From: Lotus japonicus
Taxonomy: Eukaryota > Streptophyta > Magnoliopsida > Fabales > Fabaceae
Direction: 5' to 3'
Assembly: GCF_012489685.1 (NCBI RefSeq)
Contig: NC_080046.1
Span: forward strand, 25,612,223 to 25,676,222
DNA length: 64,000 bases
Below the pieces are notes generated by a model. It had not been told where the DNA came from and made no database searches. It saw only the letters and a list, made by a program, of their open reading frames with translations. Position 1 is the stretch's first letter; each line of letters starts with the position of its first letter. This document shows positions 15,739 through 44,697 of this stretch, one piece after another. The position numbers and the translations under genes are program-made.

Positions 15739-15829
15739 ATTGAATGCAACGTGGTTAGCCAAACAACAAATCGTCCTTACCACGAAAGTGTTTAGCTCAC
15801 AACCCAATCTCAACAAACCCATGAGTTAG

Positions 15830-15975: not shown

Positions 15976-16571
15976 ACAACACTCCCAAGAGTACTAGAGT
16001 ACTCGGTGACTTTCAATCATCACCATAGCTCACCTTAGTGGCTTTCCCAATTCGAATAACTCTCCAAACCCACAACAAAAGTCGACTTTTCCCCGTCTTT
16101 CGTAAATATTTTCCCTTTTAGTTCTCCTATGATTATTCGTTTAGTAAAAACGTTTCGAATTGAATTAGTCAGGTTATGAGTTTATTTCTCAAAGTCTAAG
16201 TCTCCCAAAGTCTCTAGTTTTCGAAATTCTATTCATTCTAGGTTTTCCGAAAACCAACCACCCAAAAGAAGTTTCTCGAGGAAAGTCTAAGAATTCCAAC
16301 AAATACCAGCAAATGGCTAAGTCTCAAACCCCTCGTTTGAACTTGCCTAGGGTTGTTCATCCAACCCGAAATATCAAAGATCACCAGATCAATGAATCTC
16401 CACTCCGAAGTCGCGTCAAAACGCTCAATTCAACACAACATCACATCATAAGTTATGAAAACATTCATAACAATAAACCATCATCATAATTAATATCATA
16501 GCAAAGCATAAGTCGAATTTATCGACGCCTATCATGCAATCATAGCTAATATATATGTAAGTTGCCCTAAC

Positions 16572-16649
16572 CTCGAGCTGATCCAGCTTCGCAAGCAAAG
16601 TTCTCCTCAAACAATTGCTCTGAGTATTCCAAAGTTCCTTCAACTGAAC
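16572..16649 (-). other. 78-nt exon-like block inside LTR (family B)
   Basis: Minus strand, between TCCTCCGAG and the donor CGAG|GTTAGG. Open codons give Ser-Val-Glu-Gly-Thr-Leu-Glu-Tyr-Ser-Glu and end Glu-Ala-Gly-Ser-Ala-Arg. The block is repeated in the sister LTR at 25136-25213. Confidence 0.6.
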
Positions 16650-18152
16650 CTCGGAGGAAAACAAAGCAGAATCCAAACAAAATCGATTAGTTCGATCGCA
16701 AAACAATACATAAACGATAGACAAAGCATTAAAGCTTCAGAATACGACAATCGGGTACGAAAGGACAAGTTTTCGAAAACGAAAAACTCCCCCCCCCTTA
16801 GGAAATAGCCCACGGCCATAAGGAGAAAAGGGCTTCGGCTCTTTTTCTTCGATCAAATCAGTTTACAAGGTAGTTTTAGGGTAAAACTAAGGCAAAGAAA
16901 CTGTCGGAACAATTTTCGGACAATCGGGTCGAAATACGACTATCCAGGGGCATTTTGGTCCAAAATAAAGGCTCAAAACTTCAAAGTTATCAGTTCTGAA
17001 AACAAATTTGACAGCAACGATCCTCATGACATCCGTGACAACAAATCCTAAAGGCACGAAGTCAGATTATAGCTTTTCGACAATAAAGTTTCGAAATGTG
17101 AGACAAAAAGGATTTTGAATCAGTTTTTCAGATCCCTGTCAACTGGATCACATTCAGAGTTTACTGACAGAGGTTTTAGGCTCATGGGAACCTAGAGAAC
17201 ATAACCCAAGCAAGAAATCGAAGAAATCAGACAATTTTAGAAAAAGCTCAAAACTGTGAGCACAGAAACGACTTTAGAAACTCAGCAGAAATAGTAATCA
17301 GAGGTAGGATTCATGATAGTTACCTCGATACCTAGAAGTAGGGACGAACTGCACGAAGATTGGTCAATTTTCCGCGAAAATTCCTCTTCTCCCTTGCTCT
17401 CCAAACTCGCGGCCCTTTGAGGAAAGAAATGAGAGGATTTTGCTTTTTCGCGCTATTTATAGGCGGGTGAAATCGGGGGAAAATGAAAATTTCGCGATTC
17501 CGATTTTTGCAGCACGATCACCGAGGAATTCTAAGAGAGATTCTGGCGTCATAATTCCCGAACTCAAAACAAATATCTAAGATTTGGGAAAAACGATATC
17601 CAAAACGCCAAAAACGGTGTAAGTTAGTCTGTCCCGAAAAACTACTTTTTGCTGTGATGCTCAGACGACAAAACTGCCAACAGAAGAAAGATTGGAAATG
17701 TCGAAACAAGTCTGGCAATGCGGACGGAATCTTCGTTAGAAGTCCCGAATAGAAAAAGTCTTCATCCTTCGCTCAAAACTAGGGTTTCGAAGCAAAGAAA
17801 TTAGAGTCGGCGGACATCCGAAAAGTGAAACCTATCGTGCGTACAGTCCAGAGTTCCGAAATCAAACGCTGGTCGATGGAAAAATAAAGAGAATCTTTAA
17901 ATTTTCCGAGAGTTCGAAAACTCACTCAAAACGTTGCTTTAAGAGCGAAATAGCCTATTCTGGACACGCTCGCCCTAAGGCAAGGGTGCAGACGACTCGC
18001 ACTAACTCCGAAAACGACTACGCAACATTCCTCAATCAATTCCTGAACTTTCTTCTTCATTAATCTTTCTCAAATATCAAACTCCTGTCACGCTTACACT
18101 GATTCTACGCGTGAGTCGGAAATTAGCTTGTTCTGAAAATCCAGGTCTTACA

Positions 18153-18189: not shown

Positions 18190-19362
18190 TCAGAGTTCAG
18201 CAAAAAGTCCGGGGTACAGTTCCTTGATCTTGTCTTCCAATTCCCATGTAGCATCCCCCGTATCCTTGTTCCATATCACCTTTACCAACGAAATCTGCTT
18301 TCCCCTCAGCTGTTTTACTCTTCTATCCCCAATACTCACTGGCGGTGTCTCAAAAGTCAAATCATCCTTCAGTTCAACGTTGTCTGGCACGATCACATGA
18401 GTCGGGTCTGGAATGTACTTCCTCAATTGCGACACATGAAATACGTCATGAATGTTGGAAAGAAATGGCGGTAGTGCAATCTGATATGCAACTGGTCCAA
18501 CACGTCGAGTGATTTGATAAGGCCCAATAAACTTTGGCGTGAGCTTCCTCGACTTAATAGCTCGTCCAACTCCCGTAGTCTGAGTAACTCGTAGAAACAC
18601 ATGGTCACCTTCCTCAAACTCTAGGGTTCTGCGTCTCTGATCAGCATAACTCTTCTGTCTGCTCTGTGAAGCTCTCATCTGTTCTCTGATCTGCTTGACC
18701 TTCTCAGTCGTCTGTTGCAGCATTTCTGGCCCAATCAACAAACTCTCTCCATCCTGATACCAACACAACGGTGTCCTACACTTTCGACCATACAAAGCTT
18801 CATACGGTGCCATCCCAATACTCGCATGAAAACTATTGTTGTAGGTGAATTCAATCAATGGCAGAAGATCATCCCAGCTTCCTCTGTTATCTAACACACA
18901 AGCTCGTAGTTGATCCTCTAGCGACTGAATAGTTCTCTTTGTTTGCCCATCCGTTTGTGGATGATACGCCGAACTCAATCTTAGCTTGGTTCCTAACGCA
19001 TCATGAAGAGCTCCCCAAAAGTGCGAAGTAAACTTCGGATCCCGATCAGACACAATGCTTGTCGGAACTCCGTGTAGTCTCACAATCTCCGCCACATAAA
19101 TCTCGGCCAACTTCTCCACATTGTAGGTAGTTCTCACTGGTAGGAAATGCGCTGACTTGGTCAAACGATCCACAATCACCCAAATCGAATCGTTTCTCTT
19201 CTGTGTTCTTGGCAAAGCAACCACAAAATCCATGGATATACTATCCCATTTCCATTCTGGCACGTCTAAACTCTGTAGCATACCAGCAGGTCTTTGATGC
19301 TCTACCTTTGCCTTCTGACAAGTCAAACATGCAGCTACATACTCAGCTACTTGTTTCTTCAT
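18190..19362 (-). pseudogene. Integrase part of pol, broken (390 aa)
   Basis: This is the C-terminal part of the polyprotein, cut from the upstream part by a TAG in place of the first or second Trp of the Trp-Trp-Pro-Gly motif. It keeps the second half of the zinc-binding HHCC region (Cys12, Cys15) and the integrase core Asp45 and Asp106. The third catalytic position, 36 residues after Asp106 in the Asp-Gly-Gln-Thr-x-Arg motif, is Lys142 where the sister element at 30145 has Glu. The integrase should be inactive. The C-terminus (Val-Ile-Trp-Asn ... Trp-Glu-Leu-Glu ... Tyr-Pro-Gly-Leu-Phe) is the chromodomain-like end typical of Tekay elements. Confidence 0.9.
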
Positions 19363-19371
19363 TCCTGGCCA

Positions 19372-20058
19372 CTAGAAATTCAGCTTCAAATCTTGATACA
19401 TCTTGGTCATCCCCGGATGAATACTCCATTTGCTCTTGTGCCCTTCATCCATGATCAGCCTTCTCAATTCTGGATTGTTGGGTACACAAACTCTGTCTTT
19501 GCATCTTAAAATATCATCCGTTCCGATCTTGAATTCCGGGTCTTTCCCTTGAATCACTAAGTTCCTCTTCTCCAGCAGAAACTCATCTTGCAGTTGTTGC
19601 TCTCTAATCTCTTCCATCAGTCCACTGGCAATTCTGATCATACCGAACTTCAACTTTCCCTCAGACGGTGTCACGCCTAAACTCATATCTCGAAATTGTT
19701 CCAGTAACTCCAGCTCCTTAACCATCATTGACGAAACATGCATCTTTCTGCTCAAAGCATCAGCAACTACATTCGCCTTCCCAGGGTGATATTGCAACGT
19801 AAACTCATAGTCCTTGATGAACTCCATCCATCTTCGTTGCCTCATGTTCAACTCCTTCTGATCAAACAAGTATTTAAGGCTCTTGTGATCGCTAAATATC
19901 GTGAAAGTACAACCATAGAGATAATGCCTCCAGATCTTCAGCGCAAACACAATGGCAGCTAACTCCAAATCATGAGTCGGGTAGTTCCTCTCATGCGTCT
20001 TCAACTGTCTCGAAGCATACGCCACCACTTTTCGATGTTGCATCAGCACACATCCCAA
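19372..20058 (-). pseudogene. RNase H part of pol, broken (228 aa)
   Basis: This is the polyprotein segment between two stops. RNase H residues Glu32 (Leu-Glu-Leu-Ala), Asp57 (Phe-Ser-Asp-His) and Asp100 (Ala-Asp-Ala-Leu-Ser-Arg) are present; the first catalytic Asp lies just upstream of the stop at 20059-20061. His207 and His214 of the integrase zinc domain lie at its end. The upstream stop is TAA where the sister element reads CAA after Asp-Ala-Ser-His. Both breaks are single C-to-T or G-to-A changes. Confidence 0.9.
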
Positions 20059-20061
20059 GCC

Positions 20062-22608
20062 TTAATACGAAGCATCACAATAAACATCATAAGGTTCTTC
20101 TGGTTGCGGCAAAATAAGTACAGGTGCTGTCGTCAAACGTTCCTTCAGAGTCTGAAAACTTGATTCACACGCCTCAGTCCATGCAAAAGGTTGATCCTTC
20201 CTCGTCAGTTGAGTCAAAGGTCCAACGATCTTGGCAAATCCCTCAATGAAGCGTCTATAATATCCAGCCAAACCCACAAAACTTCTGATCTCCGTCACTG
20301 TCTTCGGTTGCTCCCAAGCCAAAACAGTCTCCATTTTCGCCGGATCCACAGCTATGCCTTCCTTTGAGATAACGTGGCCTAAGAAATTAACTTCCTTCAG
20401 CCAGAATTTACACTTGGAAGGGTTCGCATACAGCTTCTTTTCTCTCAACACTTGTAAAACTTGGCGCAAATGTCCTTCATGTTCCTTTGCGTCCTTCGAA
20501 TATATCAATATGTCATCAATAAACACCACCACAAACCGATCTAAGAACTCATGAAAGATACGGTTCATGTAATCCATAAAGACAGCAGGTGCATTGGTCA
20601 CTCCAAACGGCATCACTAGGTACTCATAGTGTCCGTAGCGTGTTCTGAATGCAGTCTTTGGTACATCCTCAGTCTTCACCCTGATCTGATGGTAGCCTGA
20701 TTTCAAATCTATCTTCGAAAATACAGCAGCCCCTCGTAACTGATCCATCAAATCATCTATCCTCGGCAACGGGTATCGGTTCTTGATCGTCGCCTTGTTC
20801 AGCTGTCGATAATCCACACATAATCTCGACCTTCCATCTTTCTTCTTAACTAGAAGCACTGGCGCTCCCCACGGTGAAACACTTGGTCGAATAAATCCTT
20901 TTGCCGAAAGATCCTCCAACTGAGATTTCAACTCTGCTAACTCCGCAGGTGCCATACGGTAAGGTGCAATCGAAATCGGTCCAGTTCTGGGTACAATGTC
21001 GATCACAAACTCCACATCGCGTACAGGCGGCAGTCCAGGTACATCTCCAGGAAAAACATCCGCAAAATCTCGAACCACCGGAATACCATGAATATCCGAT
21101 TCCTTCTTCCCCTCCAGACTTAGCAATGAAAAGTACTTCTGAGTGCCCTCGCTCAACGATGCACTAATGTGGTTAATAGAAAGATACTCGAAAAGATCCG
21201 AGTCTGGGAACACCACTTTCTTTCGACTACAGTCCAAAAGACAATGGTAGTGGGATAACCAATCCATCCCTAGAATTACATCTAGGTTTTTAAGGGGTAG
21301 ACATACTAGGTTAGCATGGAAAGTTCTATCTTTATATACTACTGAACAGTGCATGCATGCGGCATTAGCAATTAGAGTCCTAGCAGGTGTAGTTACCATA
21401 AGATCAAAACTCAAAGTAGTAATAGGCAGATGCAGTCTTGATACGCAATCCTTAGAGACAAATGAATGAGTTGCACCAGAATCAAAGAGTACAGTTAGAA
21501 GATTACCGTCAATTTCACATTCTCCTCTGATCAACCCATCAGCTCCTTCAGCTTCTTCTCCATCCATTGTATACACTCTTCCCATAGCCACTGGACGCTT
21601 CCCACTAACAGCATTCACAGCCGGTTCAACCTTCGGTGCCTTGCATTCCGTAGCCAGATGCCCAGATTTGTTGCAATTGTAGCATCTTGGTGGCCTCGTG
21701 CAATTGTTGGCATAGTGTCCCGTTCCTCCACAACGGAAACAAGTCACTTCACGATTTGGGGTACGGCTTCCCGACCCTCCTGAAGTAGCAGCAGCCATCG
21801 GCTTGTAAGATCCCGGGGTAAACCCTCTCCTTGCAGAACGTTGATATGGCTTCCTCGCCTGAAACCTTCCTCTTCCTTGAACATTCTGTGGTGTCGACCT
21901 CACCGGTCCTCCTGTTCCAACCCTGTTGTATCTCCGATTCTTCATCAATTCCACCTCAGTTGCCTTCTCAACCAACGCCTGGAATCTCGTGATCCCCAAC
22001 GGTTTCACCGAGTCTTCAATATCAGGCCTCAATCCCCTCACAAATCTCTTGCACATGTAGGGTTCATCAACTTGATCACGGAAAAACCGAAAGTACTTTG
22101 CCAGAGACTCTAACTTGGCAGCATACTCCGGAATGGTCATGCTTCCCTGTTTTAGAGTCAGAAACTGTGATTCACGCTCGTCACGAGCACTGTCTGGGAA
22201 ATACTTCTCGAGGAAAGCAGTTCGAAAAGAATTCCAGTTCACCTCAATATGATTGGCTTCCATCATCCCTCTGGCGCCTCTCCACCAGTACTCAGCATCT
22301 CCCAACAACAGATAGGTTGCCAGCCCCACTTTGGCTCCCTCAGCAGTCTGTAACACACCAAAGATCTTCTCAATTTCCTCTATCCAGAGTTCCGCTTTGT
22401 CCGGGTTAGTACCTCCCGAAAACTTAGGCGGATCCTGTCTCCTGAAGTCATTCAACCCTTTGTTCTGATCCAGAGTCGCCTCCCTCTGACGCTGGTGTTG
22501 ATCACGCGCTTCCTCCGCAGCACGTCTCAAAGCGTTGTCATTCGCTTGGTTAGTCATTGCCTGGGCCATAGTGGCCTTCATCTCCGCTAGCTGATTCGTG
22601 TTCACCAT
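20062..22608 (-). CDS. gag-protease-reverse transcriptase polyprotein (848 aa)
   Basis: One long open frame starting at the ATG about 200 bp after the primer site; the same start (Met-Val-Asn-Thr-Asn-Gln) is seen at 1264. Gag capsid-like domain lies at about residues 60-220. Two CCHC knuckles are at 290-303 and 309-322 for nucleic-acid binding. The aspartic protease motif Asp-Ser-Gly is at 376-378 and Leu-Gly-Met-Asp-Trp at about 446-450. Reverse transcriptase runs from about 540 to 750, with Lys-Ile-Asp at 632-634 and Phe-Ile-Asp-Asp at 696-699. The frame ends in the first RNase H motif (Tyr-Cys-Asp-Ala-Ser) at a premature TAA. The intact polyprotein would continue through the next two segments. 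Acts in cytoplasmic virus-like particles by analogy with the family. Confidence 0.93.
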
Positions 22609-22816: not shown

Positions 22817-23295
22817 CAATGTAACACCCCGATTTTCAGGTGTCACTTTAGTAACAAAAAATAACCTTTACGCGAAAAACAGGTAAATTTTTTTCGTTTC
22901 TTTCGATTGATTCCTTTAAATCAAAGCGTTAAAGAAGTAAGGACAAAACCCAACAACTAACTAACCGATATACAATATATACATCTGTACAGCCTCAGCT
23001 GCACTCCATGTCACGCGAAGCCGCAGTGACTCCAAAGTAGTACGCCCGTAGGCAAATATGTACAACATCAGCACTGTAAGTAAAAGTATCAAAATACAGT
23101 TATCCAAGAGAAAGTCGGCACTCAAAAATGGCCTGAAAGGAAGACCCCTATACTCCGATAGACTCTCTGTGATCCTCCTCAAAAGAACCACACAAAAAGC
23201 CACACATCGGAACCTACCCTGTCCCCAAAAAAACTGACGATCAGAGCTCTACACAAAAAAATGTCGCTAATCCTAACCTACCCTCCCAGCTCAGC

Positions 23296-23964
23296 TCACC
23301 AATCCTCCTCCTCCTCATCGCTGCTCGGCGAGTAGCTCTCCCCACTGCTCTCGGAGTCAGAGTCGGAATCCACCGTAATCATCTCGGTGTCCAAGTCCAT
23401 AACCTCCCTCCTCACTGTCCTGCGCACCGCCCTAGTCGAGCCGGTCTCCACATCCACCTCTCCTGTAAAAACATCCTCCTCTACCACCCTCATCAAGGGG
23501 TCCACACGGTAGCCGTGCGGTGAAGAGAAAGAAAGGAGACGTGAGGCAGATGGAACGACAGACTCCCTCCTCGGCTCTACGAGCCTAGAGGACGACGCCA
23601 CGTCGGTAGAAGCGATGGCAGTAGCCGGAGGTGGCACAACAGGTAAAGCAGCAGCAGCAGGCTCGATCTCCTCTAGGTCCTCCTCAACAGAAGGTGAAGT
23701 CGGAGGTGGTGCAGGTGGTGCATGTCCAGTGCCTGGTCCACAATGAACTGAGGGCGGCAAGTCAAAACTCAGCTCCATATGCCGTAGCACTCCGCTCGTC
23801 ATGCGTCCTCGCTCATCCGTCCGGTCCTCCATGACCCTTCCCCTATACGTCGCTCGGTGACAAGCTACATCGATCACCCAAGCGTTGGGGGCATCCCGAT
23901 CCAGCAGCTCATATCTGATCCCCCCCGAGGGAGAGACCGTCGAGAACCACTCGGCCATCGACAT
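23296..23964 (-). CDS. LTR-encoded acidic-tail protein, family B (222 aa)
   Basis: Sister copy of 14585-15256 with a dozen or so residue differences and one Ala fewer in the Ala run; it starts after the same GCTGCCAG. It has the conserved N-terminal block with Glu-Trp-Phe in place of Asp-Trp-Phe, then the Pro-rich linker, basic patch and Ser/Asp/Glu tail ending Asp-Trp. Being in the 5' LTR, it lies between the LTR promoter and gag on the genomic transcript. Both LTR copies remain open although gag-pol has two stops. Confidence 0.6.
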   Translation of the reverse strand: MSMAEWFSTVSPSGGIRYELLDRDAPNAWVIDVACHRATYRGRVMEDRTDERGRMTSGVLRHMELSFDLPPSVHCGPGTGHAPPAPPPTSPSVEEDLEEIEPAAAALPVVPPPATAIASTDVASSSRLVEPRRESVVPSASRLLSFSSPHGYRVDPLMRVVEEDVFTGEVDVETGSTRAVRRTVRREVMDLDTEMITVDSDSDSESSGESYSPSSDEEEEDW

Positions 23965-25135
23965 CTGGCAGCAGGCCGACCGCCCAAAGACAAACATACA
24001 AACAAAGCCAAGGCGCTAGGGTCAACTCACAGCAATAAGTACATATACACACAACATGTGACAGGGTATATATATAAGTTGTTATATAAGCATAAAAGTA
24101 ATCCTAGCATGTTATGGCTCTAACATTGCTTCAATAAACAAACAGCATATGATGAACCATTCCCGTTATTCATCCTGGATGAACCATTCCCGTTATTCAT
24201 CCTTGGTGAACCATTCCCGTTATTCACCATATGATGAACCATTCCCGTTATTCATCATTTATGCAAGGTGAACCATTCCTGTTATTCACCATGATATGCA
24301 CAGGTGAACCATTCCCGTTATTGACCCGATTGAATGCAACGTGGTTAGCCAAACAACGAATCGTCCTTACCACGAAAGTGTTTAGCTCACAACCCGATCT
24401 CAACAAACCCATGAGTTAGTGTCGGTCAATACAACACAACTCGGAGTGAGTGTCGGTCAATACAACACAACTCCATCCACAGAATACACAAGGGTCTAGT
24501 GTCGGTCAATACAACACAGCCCAAACAACAAGAGCACTAGGTGTCGGTCAATACAACACGGCTCCACAACACTCCCAAGAGTACTAGAGTACTCGGTGAC
24601 TTTCAATCATAACCATAGCTCACCTTAGTGGCTTTCCCAATTCCAATAACTCTCCAAACCCACAACAAAAGTCGACTTTTCCCCGTCTTTCGTATATATT
24701 TTCCCTTTTAGTTCTCCTATGATTATTCGTTTAGTAAAAACGTTTCGAATTGAATTAGTCAGGTTATGAGTTTATTTCTCAAAGTCTAAGTCTCCCAAAG
24801 TCTCTAGTTTTCGAAATTCTATTCATTCTAGGTTTTCCGAAAACCAACCACCCAAAAGAAGTTTCGAAATTCTATTCATTCTAAGTCTCAAACCCCTCGT
24901 TTGAACTTGCCTAGGGTTGTTCATCCAACCCGAAATATCAAAGATCACCAGATCAATGAATCTCCACTCCGAAGTCGCGTCAAAACGCTCAATTCAACAC
25001 CACATCACATCATAAGTTATGAAAACATTCATAACAATAAACCATCATCATAATTAATATCATAGCAAAGCATAAGTCGAATTTATCGACGCCTATCATG
25101 CAATCATAGCTAATATATATGTAAGTTGCCCTAAC

Positions 25136-25213
25136 CTCGAGCTGATCCAGCTTCGCAAGCAAAGTTCTCCTCAAACAATTGCTCTGAGTATTCCAAAGTT
25201 CCTTCAACTGAAC
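25136..25213 (-). other. 78-nt exon-like block inside LTR (family B)
   Basis: Copy of 16572-16649 in the 5' LTR; same splice-site-like borders, length and frame. Confidence 0.6.
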
Positions 25214-26721
25214 CTCGGAGGAAAACAAAGCAGAATCCAAACAAAATCGATTAGTTCGATCGCCAAACAATACATAAACGATAGACAAAGCATTAAAGCT
25301 TCAGAATACGACAATCGGGTACGAAAGGACAAGTTTTCGAAAACGAAAAACTCCCCCCCCCTTAGGAAATAGCCCACGACCATAAGGAGAAAAGGGCTTC
25401 GGCTCTTTTTCTTCGATCAAATCAGTTTACAAGGTAGTTTTAGGGTAAAACTAAGGCAAAGAAACTGTCGGAACAATTTTCGGACAATCGGGTCGAAATA
25501 CGACTATCCAGGGGCATTTTGGTCCAAAATAAAGGCTCAAAACTTCAAAGTTATCAGTTCTGAAAACAAATTTGACAGCAACGATCCTCATGACATCCGT
25601 GACAACAAATCCTAAAGGCACGAAGTCAGATTATAGCTTTTCGACAATAAAGTTTCGAAATGTGAGACAAAAAGGATTTTGAATCAGTTTTTCAGATCCC
25701 TGTCAACTGGATCACAATCAGAGTTTACTGACAGAGGTTTTAGGCTCATGGGAACCTAGAGAACATAACCCAAGCAAGAAATCGAAGAAATCAGACAATT
25801 TTAGAAAAAGCTCAAAACTGTGAGCACAGAAACGACTTCAGAAACTCAGCAGAAACAGTAATCAGAGGTAGGATTCATGATAGTTACCTCGATACCTAGA
25901 AGTAGGGACGAACTGCACGAAGATTGGTCAAGTTTCCGCGAAAATTCCTCTTCTCCCTTGCTCTCCAAACTCGCGGCCCTTTGAGGAAAGAAATGAGAGG
26001 ATTTTGCTTTTTTGAGCTATTTATAGGCGGGTGAAATCGCGGGAAAATGAAAATTTCGCGATTCCGATTTTTGCAGCACGATCACCGAGGAATTCTAAGA
26101 GAGATTCTGGCGTCAGAATTCCCGAACTCAAAACAAATATCTAAGATTTGGGAAAAACGATATCCAAAACGCCAAAAGCGGTGTAAGTTAGTCTGTCCCG
26201 AAAAACTACTTTTTGCTGTGATGCTCAGACGACAAAACTTCCAATAGAAGAAAGATTGGAAATGTCGAAACAAGTCTGGCAACACGGACGGAATCTTCGT
26301 TAGAAGTTCCGAATAGAAAAATTCTTCATCCTTCGCTCAAAACTAGGGTTTCGAAGCAAAGAAATTAGAGTCGGCGGACATCCGAAAAGTGAAACCTATC
26401 GTGCGTACAGTCCAGAGTTCCGAAATGAAACGCTGGTCGATGGAAAAATAAAGAGAATCTTTAAATTTTCCGAGAGTTCGAAAACTCACGTAAAACGTTG
26501 CTTTAAGAGCGAAATAGCCTATTCTGGACACGCTCGCCATAAGGCAAGGGTGCAGACGACTCGCACTAACTCCGAAAACGACTACGCAACATTCCTCAAT
26601 CAATTCCTGAACTTTCTTCTTCATTAATCTTTCTCAAATATCAAACTCCTGTCACGCTTACACTGATTCTACGCGTGAGTCGGAAATTAGCTTGTTCTGA
26701 AAATCCAGGTCTTACAATCCC

Positions 26722-27053: not shown

Positions 27054-28796
27054 TGTAAGACCCAAGTTTTTAAGCTTATGCTAAGTGAATAAAATCTTAT
27101 TCACGATTAGGGTTGATGTATTGTGAAGGGAAAACTGAACAAGAGTTTATTAAATGAAATAAATTATGAAGGAGAAAGTTCAGGAAAAGTCTAAGGATTG
27201 CATCATGATCGATAAAAGGTATAGTACGATCGTTTTACGCTTAAACCTAGGTCAGAAACCCTAGTAAATAGCTAGTTTTGACTAATCATCCTGCATTCAT
27301 GCAACATTAATGAGGTATTAACACATGACGTACTCTGGACCTCGTCGGTTTCCAAAATGGTCATAAGACCCGGAATGCCGTGTAAGAGCGTTTGTAGACG
27401 ACTCTTGTAGCAGACCGAAATGGCAGACCTACGGGTTACGGCTGATCTGACTACCGTTGTTGTTGGAGTAAGAGGCACGCGGGCCGAAATGGTCCCACCG
27501 TGGCTGGTGCTAGGGCTGATCCGTTGATGTCCATTCGTTCCGGAATGCATGTGGTTAACTGGGTTAACCGTCATTTGCATATCATGCAACATGCATACTA
27601 ATTTAGTTGTTGCGTGTGATTGTTACTTGTTAATCCTATCTGGAACATGTTAAGTGTTATTATTGTCGTTTATTTTCCTTGTGGTATATGCAACCCTAGG
27701 ATGTTATCCCTAGTTATAAGCCTAAGTGGCTATTTCTTATCTGTATCTATTGGTGCTATTATTTACGTAATTCTTTGGAGTTGACCCTCGCGTCTTCTGT
27801 GTGTGTTTTGGCGGACAACGCCTTTTGTCAGATGTCCATTGCGGACTGGTTCACAATGGTCCACCCTTCGGGGGGGGATTAGATACGAGATGATTGACCA
27901 GGACGACCCCGGTTCGTGGGTGGTTGACCCCGCTAGCCATCGAGCGACTTACTCGGGGCGGATTATGGAGGACCATGTTGATAGGGTAGGAGTCTTGACG
28001 TCAGGAGTGCTGCGGAGATGCACTGTCATTTTCAACTTGCCACCTGGTGTGCATTGCGGACCAGGAGCAGGAGGACCACCACCACCACCGTTATCCTCGG
28101 ATGAGGAGGATCCCTCAGAGGAGGAGCCAGTGGGAGTGCCTTCGGCAGAGTCCAGTTCACCCACCGTTGCTGTCATAGATGATCATGGATCGGGCCCTAA
28201 ACCCGTTAGTCCAGCACCGGAGCGCATTGCGGTTGCGAGGGGAGGTCGGGTAGTGTTTGTAGACTTGGTCGTTCTGGATTCTGATTCAGACGACGATCAC
28301 GCTAGCACATAGTTTGAGTGCTGGTATGAGCTCCTCGAGATAGGATTAGTGTAGGAGTAGAGTCTTAGCTCTGATTGTCATTTGTTTCCTTTGGGACAGG
28401 GTAGTTTCCCACCGATAGCTTTTTGGGTGGTTCTCTACGGGAATCACAGAGAGTTGGTTGGACTTAGGAGGTCTTGTTTTTAGGCCATCTGGGCTAACTT
28501 ATTCTCAATTTTTGAAGGTGTGAGTTGCGGACGCTCAACCTTTTCATTTGGTTTGTACATATTGCCTACGGGCGTTACACCTTTCTTTCCGTCACTGGAG
28601 GTTACTCGTGACGAGGTTGCTACTTACAACGGGGGCTGTTATATATATTGTATATTAGTTTTATTGCTTTTCGCATTTGGGTTTTGTTTAATTCAGTCTT
28701 GTCTTTATTATTATCGGAAAAAAAAATATTCACGTTTTTCCGCATTAGTTTATCTTTTGGTTACTAAAGTGACGCCACCGAAATCGGGGTGTTACA
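27054..28796 (+). mobile_element. 5' LTR of the family A element (2.3-kb deletion)
   Basis: After the first 228 bases, which match 32141-32368, the sequence jumps to what corresponds to 34670 in the 3' LTR. The junction shares only TTT with both parents, consistent with microhomology-mediated loss. The TATA box, first exon and 78-nt block are gone; the terminal ORF remains, frameshifted. Confidence 0.9.
27832..28312 (+). pseudogene. LTR-encoded protein, family A, frameshifted
   Basis: It matches 35226-35705 almost throughout, including the acceptor-like TTTTGTCAG before the ATG and the Asp-Ser-Asp-Ser-Asp-Asp-Asp tail. The G run at 27870-27877 has eight G instead of seven, which puts the first 15 residues out of frame with the rest. 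Confidence 0.8.
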
Positions 28797-28799
28797 TTG

Positions 28800-29008: not shown

Positions 29009-30148
29009 AACCTAGATATTATCCTAGGAATGGATTGGCTGTCCCGCTATCATTGTCTTTTGTACTTTAACCGAAAGAGAGTGGTATTTCCTGATTCGGA
29101 TCTTTCCGAGTATCTATCTGCTAATCACATTAGCGTCTCTTTGAACGAGGGATCTCAAGAGTATTCCGTTCTGCTAAGCTTGGAGAGTGAAGGGAATCCG
29201 GGAGTTGATAATATTCCAGTGGTGAGAGACTTCACGGATGTTTTTCCTGGCGATGTACCTGGACTGCCGCCTGTACGCGACATTGAGTTTGCTATTGACA
29301 TCGTACCGGGAACAGGGCCGATTTCGATTGCACCATATCGTATGGCACCTGCAGAGCTAGTGGAATTGAAGTCCCAACTAGAAGATCTTTTGTCGAAGGG
29401 ATTTATCCGACCAAGCGTTTCACCTTGGGGAGCGCCAGTCTTATTGGTGAAGAAGAAGGACGGGAAATCGAGATTGTGTGTCGACTACCGACAACTGAAC
29501 AAAGTAACCATCAAGAATAGGTATCCGTTACCTAGAATTGATGATTTGATGGATCAACTGCGAGGAGCTGCGATATTCTCAAAGATCGATCAGAAGTCGA
29601 GTTATCATCAAATCAGAGTGAAGACTGAAGATATCCAGAAGACGGCATTCAGAACCCGTTATGGACACTATGAGTACTTAGTGATGCCATTTGGGGTGAC
29701 AAATGCACCTGCAATATTCATGGATTACATGAATAGGACGTTCCATACATTCTTGGATCGATTCGTCGTGGTGTTTATCGACGACATTCTGATCTACTCA
29801 AAGAATGCTGAGGACCATGAGGGGCACTTGCGACAAGTCTTACAAGTGCTGAGGGAGAAGGAGTTGTACGCCAATCCTTCTAAGTGCGAATTTTGGCTCG
29901 AAGAGGTAAAATTCTTAGGTCATGTGATCTCTAAGGAGGGGATAGCTGTGGACCCAGCAAAGGTAGAGACCGTATTGTCATGGGAACGGCCAAAGACTGT
30001 GACTGAAATCAGGAGTTTCGTTGGTTTGGCGGGATATTATCGCCGTTTCATCGAGAATTTCGCGAAGATTGTTGGACCGTTGACTCAACTCACGAGGATC
30101 AACCTTTTGCATGGACTGAAGCGTGCGAAACTAGTTTTCAGACGATGA
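29009..30148 (+). pseudogene. Protease end and reverse transcriptase remnant
   Basis: It begins in the last protease motif, joined to the gag leader through a shared AAC. Reverse transcriptase residues are present, with the first catalytic Asp in Lys-Ile-Asp (altered to Asp-Gln-Lys-Ser-Ser-Tyr after it) and the Phe-Ile-Asp-Asp box. Near 30096 four bases are missing relative to the family B copy, shifting the frame just before RNase H. There is no start codon of its own. Gag and the protease Asp-Ser-Gly are absent. Confidence 0.9.
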
Positions 30149-32103
30149 AGGAACGGTTGACGACGTCACCTGTACTCGTCTTACCGCAACCGGAGGAACC
30201 TTATGAGGTATACTGTGATGCTTCGCATCAAGGTTTGGGATGTGTGCTGATGCAACATCGGAAGGTGGTTGCTTATGCTTCAAGACAACTGAAGGTGCTT
30301 GAGAAGAATTATCCAACTCATGACTTAGAGCTAGCTGCCATCGTATTTGCGCTGAAGATTTGGAGACATCACTTATATGGATGCAATTTCACCATATTCA
30401 GTGATCATAAGAGCTTGAAGTATTTATTTGAGCAGAAGGAGCTGAACATGAGACAGCGTCAGTGGATGGAATTTCTTAAAGATTACGAGTTCACCCTGCA
30501 ATATCATCCTGGAAAGGCGAACGTTGTTGCTGATGCCTTGAGCAGGAAGATGCACATCTCGTCGATGATGGTGAAAGAACTGCAATTGCTGGAACAATTT
30601 AGAGATTTGAGCTTAGATGTGAGATTGTCCGAAGGAGAACTGAAGTTCGGAATGATCAGAATTACCAACGGATTGATGGAAGAAATACGAGACCAACAGT
30701 TACAAGATGAGTTTCTGCTCGGGAAAAGGAACTTAGTAAGTCAAGGTAAAGACCCGGAATTCAAGGTAGGAAGTGACAATATCCTACGGTGTAAGGATAG
30801 GGTTTGCGTACCTAACAACCCTGACTTGAAAAGGTTGATTATGGACGAAGGTCACAAGAGCAAGTTAAGCATTCATCCTGGAATGAAAAAGATGTATCAG
30901 GACTTGAAGGTGAATTTTTGGTGGCCAGGAATGAAAAGACAAGTGGCTGAGTATGTAGCTGCATGTTTGACATGTCAGAAGGCAAAGGTGGAACATCAGA
31001 AATCTTCAGGTATGCTACAAAGCTTAGATGTACTTGAATGGAAATGGGATAGCATATCAATGGATTTCGTCGTGGCTTTGCCAAGAACTCAAAAGGGATA
31101 TGATTCTATTTGGGTAATAGTGGATCGATTGACTAAGTCGGCTCATTTCGTACCTGTGAGGACTACGTACAACGTGGAGAAACTATCAGAGATTTATATA
31201 GCTGAGATTGTACGACTTCATGGAGTGCCAACAAGTATTGTTTCCGATCGAGACCCGAAGTTTACATCACATTTTTGGGGAGCTCTTCAAGAGGCTTTTG
31301 GAACGAGGCTGAGACTAAGTTCTGCTTATCATCCGCAGACTGACGGACAGACTGAGAGGACAATCCAGTCGTTGGAGGATTTGCTACGCGCTTGCGTGTT
31401 AGACAACAAGGGCAGTTGGGATACCTTATTGCCATTGATTGAGTTCACATACAACAACAGTTTTCATACGAGCTTTGGTATGGCACCGTATGAGGCTTTG
31501 TATGGCCGCAAGTGTAGGACACCTCTATGTTGGTATCAAAATGGAGAAAATCTGTTAGTAGGACCGGAACTTCTGCAACAGACGACTGAGAAGATCAAGC
31601 AGATCAGAGAGAAGATGAAGACTTCTCAGAGTAGACAGAAGAGTTATGCCGATCAAAGGCGCAGAACTCTGGAATTCGAAGAGGGAGACCATGTATTTCT
31701 GCGAGTGACTCAGACGACGGGAGTTGGTCGAGCAATCAAGTCAAAGAAGCTTACGCCCAAGTTTATTGGACCGTATCAGATCACTCGTCGAATTGGACCA
31801 GTCGCTTACCAGATTGCACTACCTCCATTTCTATCAAACATTCATGACGTATTCCACGTGTCACAACTGAGGAAATATATTGCGGATCCGACACATGTTA
31901 TCGAGCTGGATGACATTGAGTTGAAGGATGATCTGTCCTTCGAGACACCGCCAATTAGCATTAGTGACACCAGGATAAAACAGTTGAGAGGAAAGGAGAT
32001 CGAGTTAGTGAAGGTCATATGGAACAAAGACACCGGTGATGCGACATGGGAGCTGAAGGAGAAGATTCAAGAACAGTATCCAGAACTTTTTACTGACCCT
32101 TAA
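30145..32103 (+). CDS. RNase H-integrase part of pol (652 aa open frame)
   Basis: Open from the RNase H start to the natural end of pol. RNase H Asp25, Glu62, Asp87 and Asp130 are present. Integrase zinc ligands are His237, His244, Cys274 and Cys277; the core triad is Asp307, Asp368 and Glu404 with the last two 36 apart. The C-terminus holds the GPY-like region and a chromodomain-like end (Val-Ile-Trp-Asn ... Trp-Glu-Leu-Lys ... Tyr-Pro-Glu-Leu-Phe), which in this family targets heterochromatin. It is the only integrase in the window with all catalytic residues. It is not an independent gene: the Met is internal to pol, upstream of which there is a frameshift. Confidence 0.88.
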
Positions 32104-32140: not shown

Positions 32141-32845
32141 TGTAAGACCCAAGTTTTTAAGCTTATGCTAAGTGAATAAAATCTTATTCACGATTAGGGT
32201 TGATGTATTGTGAAGGGAAACCTGAACAAGAGTTTATTAAATGAAATAAATTATGAAGGAGAAAGTTCAGGAAAAGTCTAAGTATTGCATCATGATCGAT
32301 AAAAGGTATAGTACGATCGTTTTACGCTTAAACCTAGGTCAGAAACCCTAGAAAATAGCTAGTTTTCACTTATAGGCACGATGGAAGCTAGTTCCAAAAA
32401 TCTTTAGAGAAATATTAGAACTTCTCTTTTTCCATATATCACAATCGTTTCGAGGCGAAACTCTAGGATCTACGAACGTCCGATTCCAATCATCGGAAGT
32501 TTGCCGAAACCGAAACCCTGGTATTTCAAAACCCTAGAATCACCCGACAATGAAGACTTTTTCTATTCGGAACATCAAATGAAGATTCCACACGCGTACA
32601 CCCATTTCTCTTGATGATTTCAATCTTTCTTCAGAAGGAAGTTTTCTATTCCGACAATCGATGCAAAAAGCAACTTATCGGGTAAAATAGTTTTACACCG
32701 ACTTTGCATTAGTTACCAAAAATACAAGGAGACCTCATTTTAGTTTTGGAATTCTTTCGCCAAAACCTATCTTAGAATTCATGGAGAATGAAGCCGGAAA
32801 AATCAGATTCGCGAAACTTTCATTTTACCGCGTTTTTCCATCCTC

Positions 32846-32853
32846 TATATATA
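32846..32853 (+). promoter_or_regulatory. TATA box of family A LTR
   Basis: TATATATA about 705 bp into the LTR. The following 140 bp have no ATG and end at a donor-like site, consistent with a noncoding first exon. Confidence 0.6.
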
Positions 32854-33658
32854 GCAAAAAAGGTGAGAAAAATCACAAAAACTCCTCCATTTCTCTACCA
32901 AATCCGCGAGCTCCATTGAAGAGGAAGGAAGAAGAGCTTTTGTTCAATCTTTGCTTGATCGTCGATTAATCAGTTGCTACTTCAAGGTTTCGAGGTATAG
33001 TCGCTAATCCTTACCTCTGATCGCTTTTTCCATAGCTTTTCTCTAGACTTTTCTGAGCTGATAGTTTTGAGGTTTTTGCAAAACTATCCTGAATACTTCA
33101 TTTTTGATTCTAAACATCTTCCTTACGTGCCCAAGAGCACTTCTATCGGATTAGTTTTTCCGTTATGTCGCCGAAATTCCGCCGGAATCAATTTATGCCT
33201 CAAATACCCATTTTTGGAGTAAAGCTTCGTCTTTTGGGCTGAAAACTATCGTCTTAGCTTAGTGCTAGTAGGATTAGTTGTCATAAACGTCGTTGGTGAC
33301 GTCCCCGTCAAATTTGCTTTTCGGGATTTCAGTTTTGAAATTCTAAGTTAAAAATAGTGACCAAAATACCCCTGCGACAGTTTTTGATCCGATAATTTTT
33401 CCGAGTTTAGAATACCCTTAGTTACGGCTAATGAAAGCATAGGAACCAAGTTTGATCGAAGAAAAATCGAACCCTACAATTACCAAAAGTGACCGAGCAC
33501 TCTAAGGGGGAGGGAGGAAAATTCCTTTTTCGAAAACTTGTCCTTTCGCGCTAGATTATCGTACCTCGGAGTATGTACTACTTCGTGTAACCTTAGTAAG
33601 TATTGATAGCTTAGTTTCCGATAGATTCTGATAGTAGTTCTGGGGTTTTGCTCTAAAG

Positions 33659-33736
33659 GTGATTTTGAGGATTTCCCTGAGGAACAACGCTTTGATTGTG
33701 AAGAAGTGTTAGAAGATCATCCTGGAGAATCTTCAG
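33659..33736 (+). other. 78-nt exon-like block inside LTR (family A)
   Basis: It lies between TTTTGCTCTAAAG and the donor TTCAG|GTGAGG. Open codons give Asp-Phe-Glu-Asp-Phe-Pro-Glu-Glu-Gln-Arg-Phe-Asp-Cys and an acidic end. In the other two frames the block does not keep a shared reading across copies. Confidence 0.6.
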
Positions 33737-35225
33737 GTGAGGGCTACTCACTGAATCTCTAGTTAATGCTTAGGGTCGATGCTTTCGACATTGTTTACTG
33801 TTTATGCACTTGTTTGTGTTTGATTGGAAAAATGTTTTCTGAGGCTTCGGCTGACAATGTAGATGATTCATCTACTGAATGTTTTTGAGAGTGAATTACA
33901 TGCTAAGTGCTAAGTGGGTAATTTAGGATGTGTGATGCATGCTTTATATGCTAAGTGCTACGTGGTTATTGCATAATATGTTGATATATGACATGTTGGT
34001 TGATTGTGTTGAGTTAATTATGCTTTTGCAATGAAATCTGAGATTCTGAGTAATGAGAATAGCGGGCAGGTAATGCCGATTTTATTTTGAGAGTTTTGAG
34101 AAAGTTTGATAGGAAGAATGAGATTCAGGCCTTGTTATGGTGTTTTATGGATCGAGACATTCTCTGGAGTCAGTTGGGGATTAGGAGATCCCGAGAACTT
34201 ATAAGATTTTGCGATAAGACTAAAAGCATATTATTTTGTAAAGAAAACTCATAAGACATTAAACAACCTCTAAATCTTCAAATAATGATAATAAACTCGA
34301 AAGGAAGCTTAGGATGCAAATCTTAGTTTTTGGAAAACGAGAAGTGTCGTCGGATCCAAGTGTTGAGGAAGTTGAGAAGTATTAAGTATGTTGATGTTCT
34401 TGTGCTGTTGGAGCAGCTGTGTTGTTGGACTATCCGGGGGATAAGTCCGGGAAATTGATAGTTTCCGAGTATGTGATACTCTTTGCACGTTGAGCAGTTT
34501 TGACCATCGGTTTGAGATGAGTCAGATGATTTGGAGATCATCATGAGTTATGTGTTGTTGTAGAGATGAGTCTTTTGTCGCAAAATCGACTGTTACCTTA
34601 GGGTAAGCTTTTAGAGACATTAATTTAGCTAGAACACGTGGCGACGTGTCGAGTGAGATCGGAGACGTTGTTTGACTAATCATCCTGCATTCATGCAACA
34701 TTAATGAGGTATTAACACAGGACGTACTCTGGACCTCGTCGGTTTCCAAAATGGTCATAAGACCCGGAATGCCGTGTAAGAGCGTTTGTAGACGACTCTT
34801 GTAGCAGACCGAAATAGCAGACCTACGGGTTACGGCTGATCTGACTACCGTTGTTGTTGGAGTAAGAGGCACGCGGGCCGAAATGGTCCCACCGTGGCTG
34901 GTGCTAGGGCTGATCCGTTGATGTCCATCCGTTCCGGAATGCATGTGGTTAACTGGGTTAACCGTCATTTGCATATCATGCAACATGCATACTAATTTAG
35001 TTGTTGCGTGTGATTGTTACTTGTTAATCCTATCTGGAACATGTTAAGTGTTATTATTGTCGTTTATTTTCCTTGTGGTATATGCAACCCTAGGATGTTA
35101 TCCCTAGTTATAAGCCTAAGTGGCTATTTCTTATCTGTATCTATTGGTGCTATTATTTACGTAATTCTTTGGAGTTGACCCTCGCGTCTTCTGTGTGTGT
35201 TTTGGCGGACAACGCCTTTTGTCAG

Positions 35226-35705
35226 ATGTCCATTGCGGACTGGTTCACAATGGTCCACCCTTCGGGGGGGATTAGATACGAGATGATTGACCAGGACGAC
35301 CCCGGTTCGTGGGTGGTTGACCCCGCTAGCCATCGAGCGACTTACTCGGGGCGGATTATGGAGGACCATGTTGATAGGGTAGGAGTCTTGACGTCAGGAG
35401 TGCTGCGGAGATGCACTGTCAGTTTCAACTTGCCACCAGGTGTGCATTGCGGACCAGGAGCAGGAGGACCACCACCACCACCGTTATCCTCGGATGAGGA
35501 GGATCCCTTAGAGGAGGAGCCAGTGGGAGTGCCTTCGGCAGAGTCCAGTTCACCCACCGTTGCTGTCATAGATGATCATGGATCGGGCCCTAAGCCCGTT
35601 AGTCCAGCACCAGAGCGCATTGCTGTTGCGAGGGGAGGTCGGGTAGTGTTTGTAGACTTGGTCGTTCTGGATTCTGATTCAGACGACGATCACGCTAGCA
35701 CATAG
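35226..35705 (+). CDS. LTR-encoded acidic-tail protein, family A (159 aa)
   Basis: Function unknown to me. The start is the ATG directly after the acceptor-like TTTTGTCAG; the frame is open 19 codons further up (Met at 35169), but that part does not align in length with family B, whose upstream segment differs by about 10 bases, as expected for intron. Residues 1-77 are the conserved block ending Leu-Pro-Pro-Gly-Val-His-Cys-Gly-Pro-Gly. Then come a Pro run, an acidic stretch, and a C-terminus with Val-Asp-Leu-Val-Val-Leu followed by Asp-Ser-Asp-Ser-Asp-Asp-Asp. No membrane segment. The hydrophobic core plus acidic run resembles a SUMO-interacting motif (inference). Confidence 0.6.
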   Translation: MSIADWFTMVHPSGGIRYEMIDQDDPGSWVVDPASHRATYSGRIMEDHVDRVGVLTSGVLRRCTVSFNLPPGVHCGPGAGGPPPPPLSSDEEDPLEEEPVGVPSAESSSPTVAVIDDHGSGPKPVSPAPERIAVARGGRVVFVDLVVLDSDSDDDHAST

Positions 35706-36192
35706 TTTGAGTGCTGGTATGAGCTCCTCGAGATAGGATTAGTGTAGGAGTAGAGTCTTAGCTCTGACTGTCATTTGTTTCCTTTGGGACAGGGTAGTTT
35801 CCCACCGATAGCTTTTTGTGTGGTTCTCTACGGGAATCACAGAGAGTTGGTTGGACTTAGGAGGTCTTGTTTTTAGGCCATCTGGGCTAACTTATTCTCA
35901 ATTTTTGAAGGTGTGAGTTGCGGACGCTCAACCTTTTCATTTGGTTTGTACATATTGCCTACGGGCGTTACACCTTTCTTTCCGTCACTGGAGGTTACTC
36001 GTGACGAGGTTGCTACTTACAGCGGGGACTGTTATATATATTGTATATTAGTTTTATTGCTTTTCGCATTTGGGTTTTGTTTAATTCAGTCTTGTCTTTA
36101 TTATTATCGAAAAAAAATATTCACGTTTTTCCGCATTAGTTTATCTTTTGGTTACTAAAGTGACGCCACCGAAATCGGGGTGTTACAGCCCC

Positions 36193-36330
36193 CACCTCTT
36201 GGGTGATCGATCCTGTGGATCATCGGGCGACGTACCGGGGAAGGTTCATGGAGGACCGTACTGACGTGCGTGGACATCTGACGAGGGGAGTTCTACGACG
36301 CATGGAGCTGAGCTTCAACTTGCCGCCTTC
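36193..36330 (+). mobile_element. B/D-type LTR fragment, segment 4, with middle of LTR ORF
   Basis: This is the last part of the split host LTR, coding for the conserved block from Thr-Ser-Trp-Val-Ile-Asp to Leu-Ser-Phe-Asn-Leu-Pro-Pro-Ser. It stops abruptly and is joined to an integrase fragment; neither an LTR end nor a target duplication is present, so this is a deletion scar. Confidence 0.85.
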
Positions 36331-36865
36331 AGAGAGAAAATGAAGACTTCTCAAAGTAGACAGAAGAGTTATGCAGATCAAAGGCACAGAACTCTAGAAT
36401 TCGAAGAAGGAGACCTTGTATTTCTGCGAGTTACCCAGACTACAGGAGTTGGTCGAGCAATCAAGTCAAGAAAGCTTACGCCAAAGTTCATTGGACCTTA
36501 TCAGATTACACGTCGTGTAGGACCGGTAGCTTATCAGATTGCACTACCACCATTTCTATCAAACATTCACGATGTATTTCATGTGTCACAACTGAGGAAG
36601 TATATTGCTGATCCGACACATGTTATCGAGCTGGATGACATTAAGTTGAAGGATGACCTGTCTTTCGAGACACCGCCAATTAGCCTTGGTGACACAAGGA
36701 TGAAACAGTTGAGAGGAAAAGAGATAGAGTTAGTGAAGGTCATTTGGAACAAAGACACCGGTGATGCGACATGGGAGCTGAAGGAAAAGATCAAGGAATA
36801 GTATCCAGAACTATTTACTGAACCCTAAGTTTCGAGGTCGAAACTTTCTTTTTGGAGGGTAGTAA
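36331..36865 (+). pseudogene. Integrase C-terminal remnant and polypurine tract
   Basis: About 156 codons of the pol C-terminus (GPY-like and chromodomain-like parts), close to 31610-32100. A TAG replaces a sense codon nine residues before the natural end (36799-36801). It is followed by the conserved tail, polypurine tract and the LTR at 36866, so it is the 3' end of a 5'-truncated family A element. Confidence 0.9.
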
Positions 36866-44226: not shown

Positions 44227-44697
44227 ATGGCGGACTGGTTTACGATGGTCCACCCTTCGGGGGGGACCCGGTTTGAGATGCTGGACCAGGATGACCCCGG
44301 TTCATGGGTGGTCGACCCCGCTGGCCACCGTGCGACCTATTCGGGGAGGATTATGGAGGACCGCGTTGACCGACTGGGGCACCTGACGGAGGGAGTGCTG
44401 AGGAGGTACACCGTGAGCTTCAACTTGCCACCTGGCGTGCACTGCGGACCAGGAGTGGAAGCACCACCACCACCGTCATCTTCTGATGATGAGGACCCCT
44501 CAGAGGAGGAGCCTGTGGGAGGGACTTCTGCGGAGTCTAGCTCACCCACCATCGTTGTCATCGATGATCTTGGCTCGGGCCCTACGCCCGTGAGGCCAGC
44601 ACCGGAGCGCATCGGGGTAGCGAGAGGAGGTAGGATGGTGTACATAGACTTGGTCGTTCTGGATTCAGATTCGGACGACGATCACGCTAGCATGTAG
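44227..44697 (+). CDS. LTR-encoded acidic-tail protein, family A (156 aa)
   Basis: Intact counterpart of 35226-35705. In this copy the ATG after the acceptor-like CAG has become AGG, so the first Met is the one in Met-Ala-Asp-Trp-Phe two codons on. The frame is also open upstream to 44116, which includes presumed intron. The conserved block, Pro-rich linker, Ile-Val-Val-Ile-Asp-Asp stretch and Leu-Val-Val-Leu plus Asp/Ser tail are all present. Several changes against 35226-35705 are conservative (His/Arg, Val/Ile, Asp/Glu). Confidence 0.6.
   Translation: MADWFTMVHPSGGTRFEMLDQDDPGSWVVDPAGHRATYSGRIMEDRVDRLGHLTEGVLRRYTVSFNLPPGVHCGPGVEAPPPPSSSDDEDPSEEEPVGGTSAESSSPTIVVIDDLGSGPTPVRPAPERIGVARGGRMVYIDLVVLDSDSDDDHASM

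What the first reader, a model, noticed from the sequence alone, without database searches (positions are those of the whole stretch)
35226..35705. Unrecognised protein encoded inside the LTRs of two Tekay-like families
Open frames of 156-223 codons sit about 480-750 bp from the LTR end in families A (35226, 44227) and B (14585, 23296), with decayed copies at 27832, 56322 and 26978/36193. The first 75-80 residues align between families without a gap although flanking LTR sequence is poorly alignable, and many codon differences are at third positions. Frames stay open in both LTRs of an element whose gag-pol has two stops. LTR-internal proteins are rare in plant retroelements. That it is translated and selected is inference.
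Basis: partly seen in the sequence, partly recalled or inferred. Interest (0 to 1): 0.88.

Follow-up and report, generated by a model that had tools for sequence, protein, structure and literature searches.

The report
Protein gene hidden inside retrotransposon LTRs
In a lotus-like legume genome, retrotransposons carry a small protein gene inside their end repeats, and the pattern of mutations shows that natural selection kept the protein working while the elements multiplied.

Summary
Two families of Ty3/gypsy elements carry a sense frame (156-234 codons) wholly inside the LTR, about 480 bp before its 3' end. It is selected as a protein: across 52 copies from the same genome pooled dN/dS falls from 0.81 (near-identical copies) to 0.16-0.18 (distant ones); variable columns by codon position are 37/30/102, while flanking LTR shows no periodicity; wrong frames give 1.3-1.7. 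The two LTRs of one element differ neutrally (2 synonymous, 12 nonsynonymous). So the frame is selected between insertions and decays afterwards: only 10 of 29 flank-chosen copies are fully open. The protein has a beta-rich N-terminal domain of about 75 residues without a recognised family, a loose acidic linker, and a conserved C-terminal block (LVVLDSDSDDD / MITVDSDSDSE) resembling a SUMO-interacting motif. All 9 named of 17 relatives found are Lotus japonicus. Best reading: an LTR-resident accessory protein acting through SUMO on silencing or integration; the SUMO step is inference, and translation is not shown. Extra ORFs of plant retrotransposons are known; the review I read places them in the internal region. 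New variant of a known kind.

The parts
35226..35705 (+). LTR-internal ORF, family A, 3' LTR copy (159 aa)
   Evidence: dN/dS
35264..35270 (+). run of seven G (S-G-G codons); commonest place of frame loss among flank-chosen genomic copies
35658..35690 (+). C-terminal SUMO-interacting-motif-like block LVVLDSDSDDD
   Evidence: dN/dS 0.11 in codons 131-156
35172..35180 (+). GAGTTGACC, inside the most conserved 15-base block of the 5' flank of family A; contains TTGACC, a WRKY W-box core (recalled)
32141..36187 (+). 3' LTR of element A (about 4.05 kb)
27054..28796 (+). 5' LTR of element A, 1.74 kb, shorter than the 3' LTR; GCCCC stands outside both ends of the element
27832..28312 (+). family A ORF in the 5' LTR, frameshifted by an eighth G
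29030..32103 (+). RT, RNase H and integrase frames of element A
44227..44697 (+). family A ORF in an LTR fragment (44087-45179), 156 aa
14585..15289 (-). family B ORF in the 3' LTR, 234 aa (inner ATG at 15256)
23296..23997 (-). family B ORF in the 5' LTR, 233 aa (inner ATG at 23964)
23362..23382 (-). SIM-like MITVDSD of family B
14109..18152 (-). 3' LTR of element B
22820..26716 (-). 5' LTR of element B
18190..22608 (-). gag-pol of element B, interrupted by two stops
56322..56561 (+). B-type copy truncated after the N-terminal domain; the same tail occurs in the L. japonicus record P0013
26978..27053 (+). first part of an older B-type LTR ORF (six G in its G run), split by element A
36188..36331 (+). 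continuation of that older ORF after element A; runs into an integrase fragment
564..719 (+). LTR copy with most of the ORF deleted and a stop before the SIM-like block
1992..2126 (-). same deletion type, second copy
7020..7154 (-). same deletion type, third copy

Best explanation
The LTRs of two related Ty3/gypsy families in this Lotus genome carry a gene for an accessory protein that acts during the transposition cycle. Shown here: the frame is kept by purifying selection between insertions and decays neutrally after insertion; its two constrained parts are an N-terminal domain of about 75 residues and a short C-terminal block, joined by a looser acidic, proline-rich linker. Inferred: it is translated from RNA started in the LTR (a splice-acceptor-like CAG stands directly before the ATG in 8 of 10 aligned window copies, and a conserved TTGACC lies about 45-60 bases upstream); it acts in the nucleus; the C-terminal block is a phospho-regulated SUMO-interacting motif that docks the protein on SUMO-modified host proteins, most plausibly to blunt SUMO-dependent silencing or to steer integration; the N-terminal domain binds the element's own partner. 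Because the gene sits in the LTR, every insertion makes two copies, and LTR fragments or solo LTRs could supply it in trans.
For: 52 copies: pooled dN/dS 0.81 at dS below 0.02, then 0.44, 0.28, 0.20, and 0.16-0.18 at dS 0.2-1.2 (five of the copies carry one stop). Variable columns by codon position 37/30/102 of 156 each in 50 copies; 3' flank 49/53/57 and 5' flank 53/63/63. Window pairs: A-A 0.13 (bootstrap 95% 0.08-0.22), A-B N-terminal 75 codons 0.28 (0.13-0.55); wrong frames 1.3-1.7 with stops; antisense LTR frames 0.64-1.04; pol 0.04. Two LTRs of element B: 2 synonymous, 12 nonsynonymous. Block dN/dS: codons 1-78 0.11-0.12, linker 0.28 and 0.41, last 26 codons 0.11 (first 400 of 669 distant pairs). 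The SIM pattern [PILVM][ILVM]x[ILVM][DSE]{3} is found in 13 of 21 proteins, in both families, against 222-398 of 5000 shuffles of four single tails. N-terminal domain modelled at mean pLDDT 77, pTM 0.59.
Against: No RNA, ribosome or peptide data. Only 10 of 29 flank-chosen copies are fully open. The copies behind the dN/dS figures were chosen by protein similarity, which favours low dN. The 3' flank read as pseudo-codons gives 0.48-0.74, not 1 (on a gap-friendly alignment; intervals 0.22-1.94). Three window LTRs lack most of the ORF yet share one deletion, so LTRs without it have multiplied. The strict SIM pattern fails in 8 of 21 proteins: P0009 and P0011 have variant blocks, P0004 a one-residue change, P0005 a changed tail, and P0013 and P0015-P0017 are truncated; several of the 13 matches are close relatives and P0012 matches in another register. 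No nuclear localisation was tested. The fold is unidentified.
Confidence: 0.7

Rival explanations
1. It is a 5' additional ORF of the kind known from Tekay elements of grasses and sunflower; it works as the first gene of the genomic RNA, before gag, with no SUMO role.
For: Known Tekay 5'aORFs lie at the 5' end of the element, the sunflower one is largely disordered and proline-rich, and sunflower and grass proteins show no similarity (PMC11728184, section 2.5 and passages). The frame here is also upstream of gag in the 5' LTR, proline-rich and partly disordered by model confidence.
Against: Here the frame is repeated in both LTRs; 156-234 aa against 402 aa in sunflower. The passages I read do not say where the published frames stand relative to the LTR, and no sequence comparison with them was possible.
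Confidence: 0.35
2. It works from the 3' end like the LTR-encoded Sag of MMTV or Nef of lentiviruses (recalled): the genomic RNA starts near the TATATATTGTATAT-like block about 150 bp before the LTR end, the ORF lies in U3, and a spliced RNA expresses it.
For: CAG directly before the ATG in 8 of 10 aligned window copies; the TATATATTGTATAT-like block is kept in 7 of 8 aligned LTR ends; P0009 and P0010 have N-terminal stretches of their own joined just before MSMADW.
Against: No transcript seen; the block is changed in the copy at 44227; TATA-like stretches also lie upstream of the ORF, and the late block may be a polyadenylation signal.
Confidence: 0.25
3. The conservation is at RNA or DNA level (packaging or regulatory sequence) and the open frame is incidental.
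For: Flanking LTR within family A is more conserved than the ORF's synonymous sites (3' flank K 0.16 where dS is 0.55).
Against: Codon-position pattern, wrong-frame controls and rarity of frame-breaking indels outside the G run.
Confidence: 0.03
4. A captured fragment of a host gene carried passively.
For: Some plant elements capture host genes (PMC7264820, parts 1-2 of 3 read).
Against: Three protein searches gave only L. japonicus names (the last two scored only the best-sharing candidates), and passive cargo would not show dN/dS of 0.17.
Confidence: 0.04

Closest known systems
5'aORF / eORF-5'F of LTR retrotransposons, including Tekay (RIRE3, RIRE8, Retrosat-2, maize and sorghum Tekay, sunflower Tekay group 2)
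   Same: Extra sense frame on the 5' side of gag-pol in chromoviruses, conserved within a family, partly disordered and proline-rich in sunflower, no domain match (PMC11728184, passages and section 2.5).
   Different: Here wholly inside the LTR and so present twice per element; the passages I read do not state whether any published 5'aORF overlaps the LTR. Shorter, below the 250 codons counted in the 2019 survey (PMC6317226, passages); beta-rich N-terminal domain; acidic SIM-like tail.
Antisense or sense 3' aORFs (Grande gene23, RIRE2, Retand, env-like frames)
   Same: Conserved extra proteins of unknown role, some nuclear (PMC7264820, parts 1-2 of 3).
   Different: Those lie between pol and the 3' LTR, not in the LTR.
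MMTV Sag and lentiviral Nef (recalled)
   Same: Accessory protein encoded inside, or overlapping, the LTR.
   Different: No sequence relation tested by name; different hosts; expression route here unknown.
VANC anti-silencing proteins of VANDAL DNA transposons (mentioned in PMC12844716 passages)
   Same: Proposed role: an element protein that counters host silencing.
   Different: DNA transposons; no homology tested.
SUMO-interacting motifs such as those of Daxx, PML, PIAS (recalled)
   Same: Hydrophobic core followed by a Ser/Asp run.
   Different: Binding not tested; the motif is shown only by pattern and conservation.

Membership tests
additional ORF (aORF/eORF) of plant LTR retrotransposons | extra coding frame besides gag-pol, kept by selection in a family | tested here: met
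   dN/dS and copy survey; but only 10 of 29 flank-chosen copies fully open
additional ORF (aORF/eORF) of plant LTR retrotransposons | located in the internal region (as the review PMC7264820 words it) | tested here: not met
   frame lies inside the LTRs
Tekay 5'aORF proteins | sequence similarity to published 5'aORF proteins | not tested
   published protein sequences were not at hand; protein searches returned no such name
Tekay clade chromovirus | RT/INT phylogenetic placement | not tested
   only Pfam domains checked (gag, protease, RT, RNase H, integrase)
Tekay clade chromovirus | chromodomain at integrase C-terminus | tested here: inconclusive
   no chromodomain among Pfam hits at E 0.001; the tail looks like a group II chromodomain by eye (recalled)
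SUMO-interacting motif | hydrophobic core plus acidic/serine stretch | tested here: met
   13 of 21 proteins incl. both families, 8 of 21 fail the strict pattern; last 26 codons dN/dS 0.11
SUMO-interacting motif | binds SUMO | not testable with these tools
   needs a binding assay
LTR-encoded accessory protein (Sag/Nef-like expression) | expressed from the 3' LTR by a spliced RNA | not testable with these tools
   no RNA data
known protein domain family | Pfam, NCBIfam or PDB sequence match | tested here: not met
   0 matches
NTF2-like fold | fold match | tested here: inconclusive

The most novel reading that the evidence does not exclude
The LTR itself is a gene: a SUMO-binding anti-silencing factor that full elements, truncated copies and solo LTRs all can express in trans, so that the many LTRs left in the genome act as a dispersed helper population, while a slippery run of seven G near its start makes a large share of new copies null and so limits dosage.
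Probability: 0.1. Interest if true: 0.88.

Novelty: new variant of a known kind. Interest (0 to 1): 0.62.

Why it matters
LTRs are usually treated as regulatory DNA. A selected protein inside them means that LTR surveys, solo-LTR dating and gene annotation can miss coding capacity; a survey threshold of 250 codons (PMC6317226, passages) would overlook this one. If the C-terminal block binds SUMO, it gives a direct handle on how a plant retrotransposon meets the silencing machinery in a model legume.

Tried and rejected

Mosaic origin of the high synonymous divergence in the N-terminal part was considered. ORF third positions and the 3' flank give the same group sizes and correlated distances (0.86, 48 copies), so recombination is not needed; the 5' flank correlates poorly (0.19). 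The cause of the faster synonymous rate stays open.

A programmed frameshift at the seven-G run was considered. The run is broken by substitutions in a few copies and other codons of the domain are equally G-rich, so slippage during copying is the simpler reading. The G-run counter also called some in-frame copies 'G6'; only copies with a frame change are used.

Errors of mine: the A1-A2 row was one codon out of register and is void (redone). The 3' flank alignment used gap-friendly scoring, so its 91% identity is too high; one search gives the better profile. One search stopped on an error and was rerun. In one search three of eight loci were read on the wrong strand; none of its rows is used. 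In one search only one of two fetched stretches was compared. Rfam at gathering thresholds: 0 matches. tRNA scan: 0.

Selection bias: the places are the best 150 by protein score out of 9121 and 8770 first-look candidates, so 144 of 150 and 127 of 150 without a stop in the matched part overstate openness. dN/dS rests on 50 fetched copies (the 30 best and 20 that I picked from its lower part) plus two in the window; one locus is counted twice (L011 = 44227). For the flank-chosen set I read 30 of the 40 matches.

Papers: one search listed four papers with Tekay and 'within the LTR'; I read passages of two and did not open the other two. Searches are listings of which I opened only the papers named in this report. 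PMC2832683, PMC11963269 and PMC12786077 were seen as passages only.

Full report
What is there. The window belongs to a 553.7 Mb genome of 65 contigs. One contig has the same length, 97635135 bases, as the contig given for the L. japonicus protein P0007; the other large contigs seen differ by some kilobases from those listed with the other L. japonicus proteins. All 9 named of the 17 relatives found are L. japonicus, so I take the plant to be L. japonicus or a very close relative. The window holds nested Ty3/gypsy elements. Element B lies on the minus strand between a 5' LTR (26716-22820) and a 3' LTR (18152-14109), with the target duplication GGGAT and a PBS-like TGGTATCAGAGC. Element A lies on the plus strand, 27054-36187, with GCCCC on both sides; it inserted into the ORF of an older B-type LTR, whose two parts are the copies at 26978 and 36188. 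Pfam finds gag, protease, RT, RNase H and integrase. The frame stops about 480 bp before the LTR end.

Selection in the window. A (35226) against A (44227) differs at 16/18/55 first, second and third positions over 158 codons, dN/dS 0.13 (bootstrap 0.08-0.22); A against B over the N-terminal 75 codons gives 0.28 (0.13-0.55) (NG86, saturated replicates dropped). The same DNA read in the other two frames gives 1.3-1.7 and contains stops; antisense LTR frames give 0.64-1.04; the 3' flank read as codons gives 0.48-0.74 without periodicity; pol gives 0.04. The two LTRs of element B, identical at insertion, differ by 2 synonymous and 12 nonsynonymous changes over 222 codons, as expected of neutral decay. 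Between the truncated copy at 56322 and the fragment at 36188 the ratio is 1.31 on 3 synonymous and 11 nonsynonymous changes.

Selection in the genome. With 52 family A copies (50 fetched plus two of the window, one locus counted twice; five carry one stop) pooled dN/dS is 0.81, 0.44, 0.28, 0.20, 0.16, 0.18 and 0.17 in rising bins of dS: close copies look nearly neutral, distant ones strongly constrained, the signature of a gene needed while the element is active. Variable columns are 37/30/102 by codon position in 50 copies; the 3' flank gives 49/53/57 and the 5' flank 53/63/63. Constraint is bimodal: codons 1-78 have 0.11-0.12, the linker 0.28 and 0.41, the last 26 codons 0.11 (the first 400 of 669 distant pairs). 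Because these copies were found by protein similarity, I also took 30 copies found by the 3' flank alone (30 of the 40 matches). Leaving out the window's own, 10 of 29 are fully open (one of them, L063, with a changed C-terminal block), 11 are frameshifted, 3 end early at a stop, 5 are partial, rearranged or lacking. Nine of the 11 frameshifts are at the run of seven G. Outside that run, 2 of the 24 copies with full or nearly full coverage have frame-breaking indels (three events), against 1 to 4 indels per copy in about 450 bp of flank. These counts are relative to one copy and share ancestry.

Copy number. The B protein had 9121 first-look candidates and the A protein 8770; 150 of each were scored. 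Among the 150 B places, 34 successive same-strand pairs, the window's own included, lie 8.55-8.80 kb apart, the spacing of the two LTRs of one element, so the frame is LTR-borne well beyond the window.

The protein. N-terminal domain: one short helix and five strands in the model, mean pLDDT 77, pTM 0.59, no sequence family and no convincing fold match. Invariant or nearly so in 21 sequences: P26, W29, V30, D32, H36, R37, A38, Y40, G42, R43, M45, E46, D47, D50. The rest is acidic and proline-rich (net charge -13 to -23 in the five proteins counted) and poorly modelled. The clearest part of the tail shared by A and B is LVVLDSDSDDD / MITVDSDSDSE. It fits a SUMO-interacting-motif pattern (recalled) in 13 of 21 proteins; shuffles of four single tails do so in 222 to 398 of 5000 each.

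Expression. Not shown. Indirect signs: P0013, an entry named only 'unknown [Lotus japonicus]' and probably from a cDNA (recalled, not seen), equals the truncated copy at 56322 but for one residue, including its odd tail; one of the NCBI entries is called 'isoform X1'; P0009 and P0010 have starts of their own joined just before MSMADW, where the LTR has CAG directly before the ATG in 8 of ten aligned window copies (the others have TAG, or CAG with the ATG six bases on). A GAGTTGACC block stands upstream in all ten and lies in the most conserved 15 bases of the 5' flank of 50 family A copies.

Compared with what is known. Plant extra ORFs are reviewed in PMC7264820 (parts 1-2 of 3 read), which describes them in the internal region. 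Tekay 5'aORFs are described in grasses and sunflower (PMC11728184, passages and section 2.5); what I read puts them at the 5' end of the element and does not say how they stand to the LTR. The 2019 survey counted extra ORFs of at least 250 codons (PMC6317226, passages), longer than this one. Searches for ORFs in or within the LTR, or encoded in the LTR, gave no paper, and 'LTR-encoded' with plant genomes gave three papers of which I saw the listing only; subscription papers, such as the 2011 survey of extra ORFs, are not held. So I call it a new variant: an accessory ORF inside the LTR, with the caution that an LTR position of some published 5'aORF is not excluded.

Verdict. The protein-coding claim is strong; the mechanism is a hypothesis. 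I put the real, selected protein at about 0.93, its SUMO-linked nuclear role at about 0.3, and the whole statement at 0.7.

Noticed in passing
35264-35270 and the matching run in genomic copies L062, L065, L071, L074-L078, L086: A run of seven G in the ORF is the main place of frame loss: 9 of 11 frameshifted flank-chosen copies have 6, 8 or 9 G there; the window copies at 27832 (8 G) and 26978 (6 G) are further cases.
   Followed up: partly
564-719, 1992-2126, 7020-7154: Three LTRs share one deletion that removes most of the ORF and a stop before the C-terminal block, so an LTR lineage without the protein has multiplied.
   Followed up: partly
family A copies, codons 1-78 against flanks: Synonymous sites diverge about three times faster than the flanking LTR (dS 0.55 against K 0.16), with more transitions than in the flank (first 300 distant pairs); unexplained.
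   Followed up: partly
about 35980-36055 and equivalents in the aligned LTR ends: A short inverted repeat (GTCAC...GTGAC) is kept in 8 of 8 aligned LTR ends and is followed by a TATATATTGTATAT-like block in 7 of 8; it may be a promoter or a polyadenylation region.
   Followed up: no
34522-34986 (-), 2650-3039 (+), 7827-8207 (+): Antisense frames in the LTR show no clear protein-level constraint (dN/dS 0.64-1.04).
   Followed up: yes
36188-36331 into 36340: The older LTR ORF fragment runs straight into an integrase fragment of another element, a rearrangement junction.
   Followed up: no
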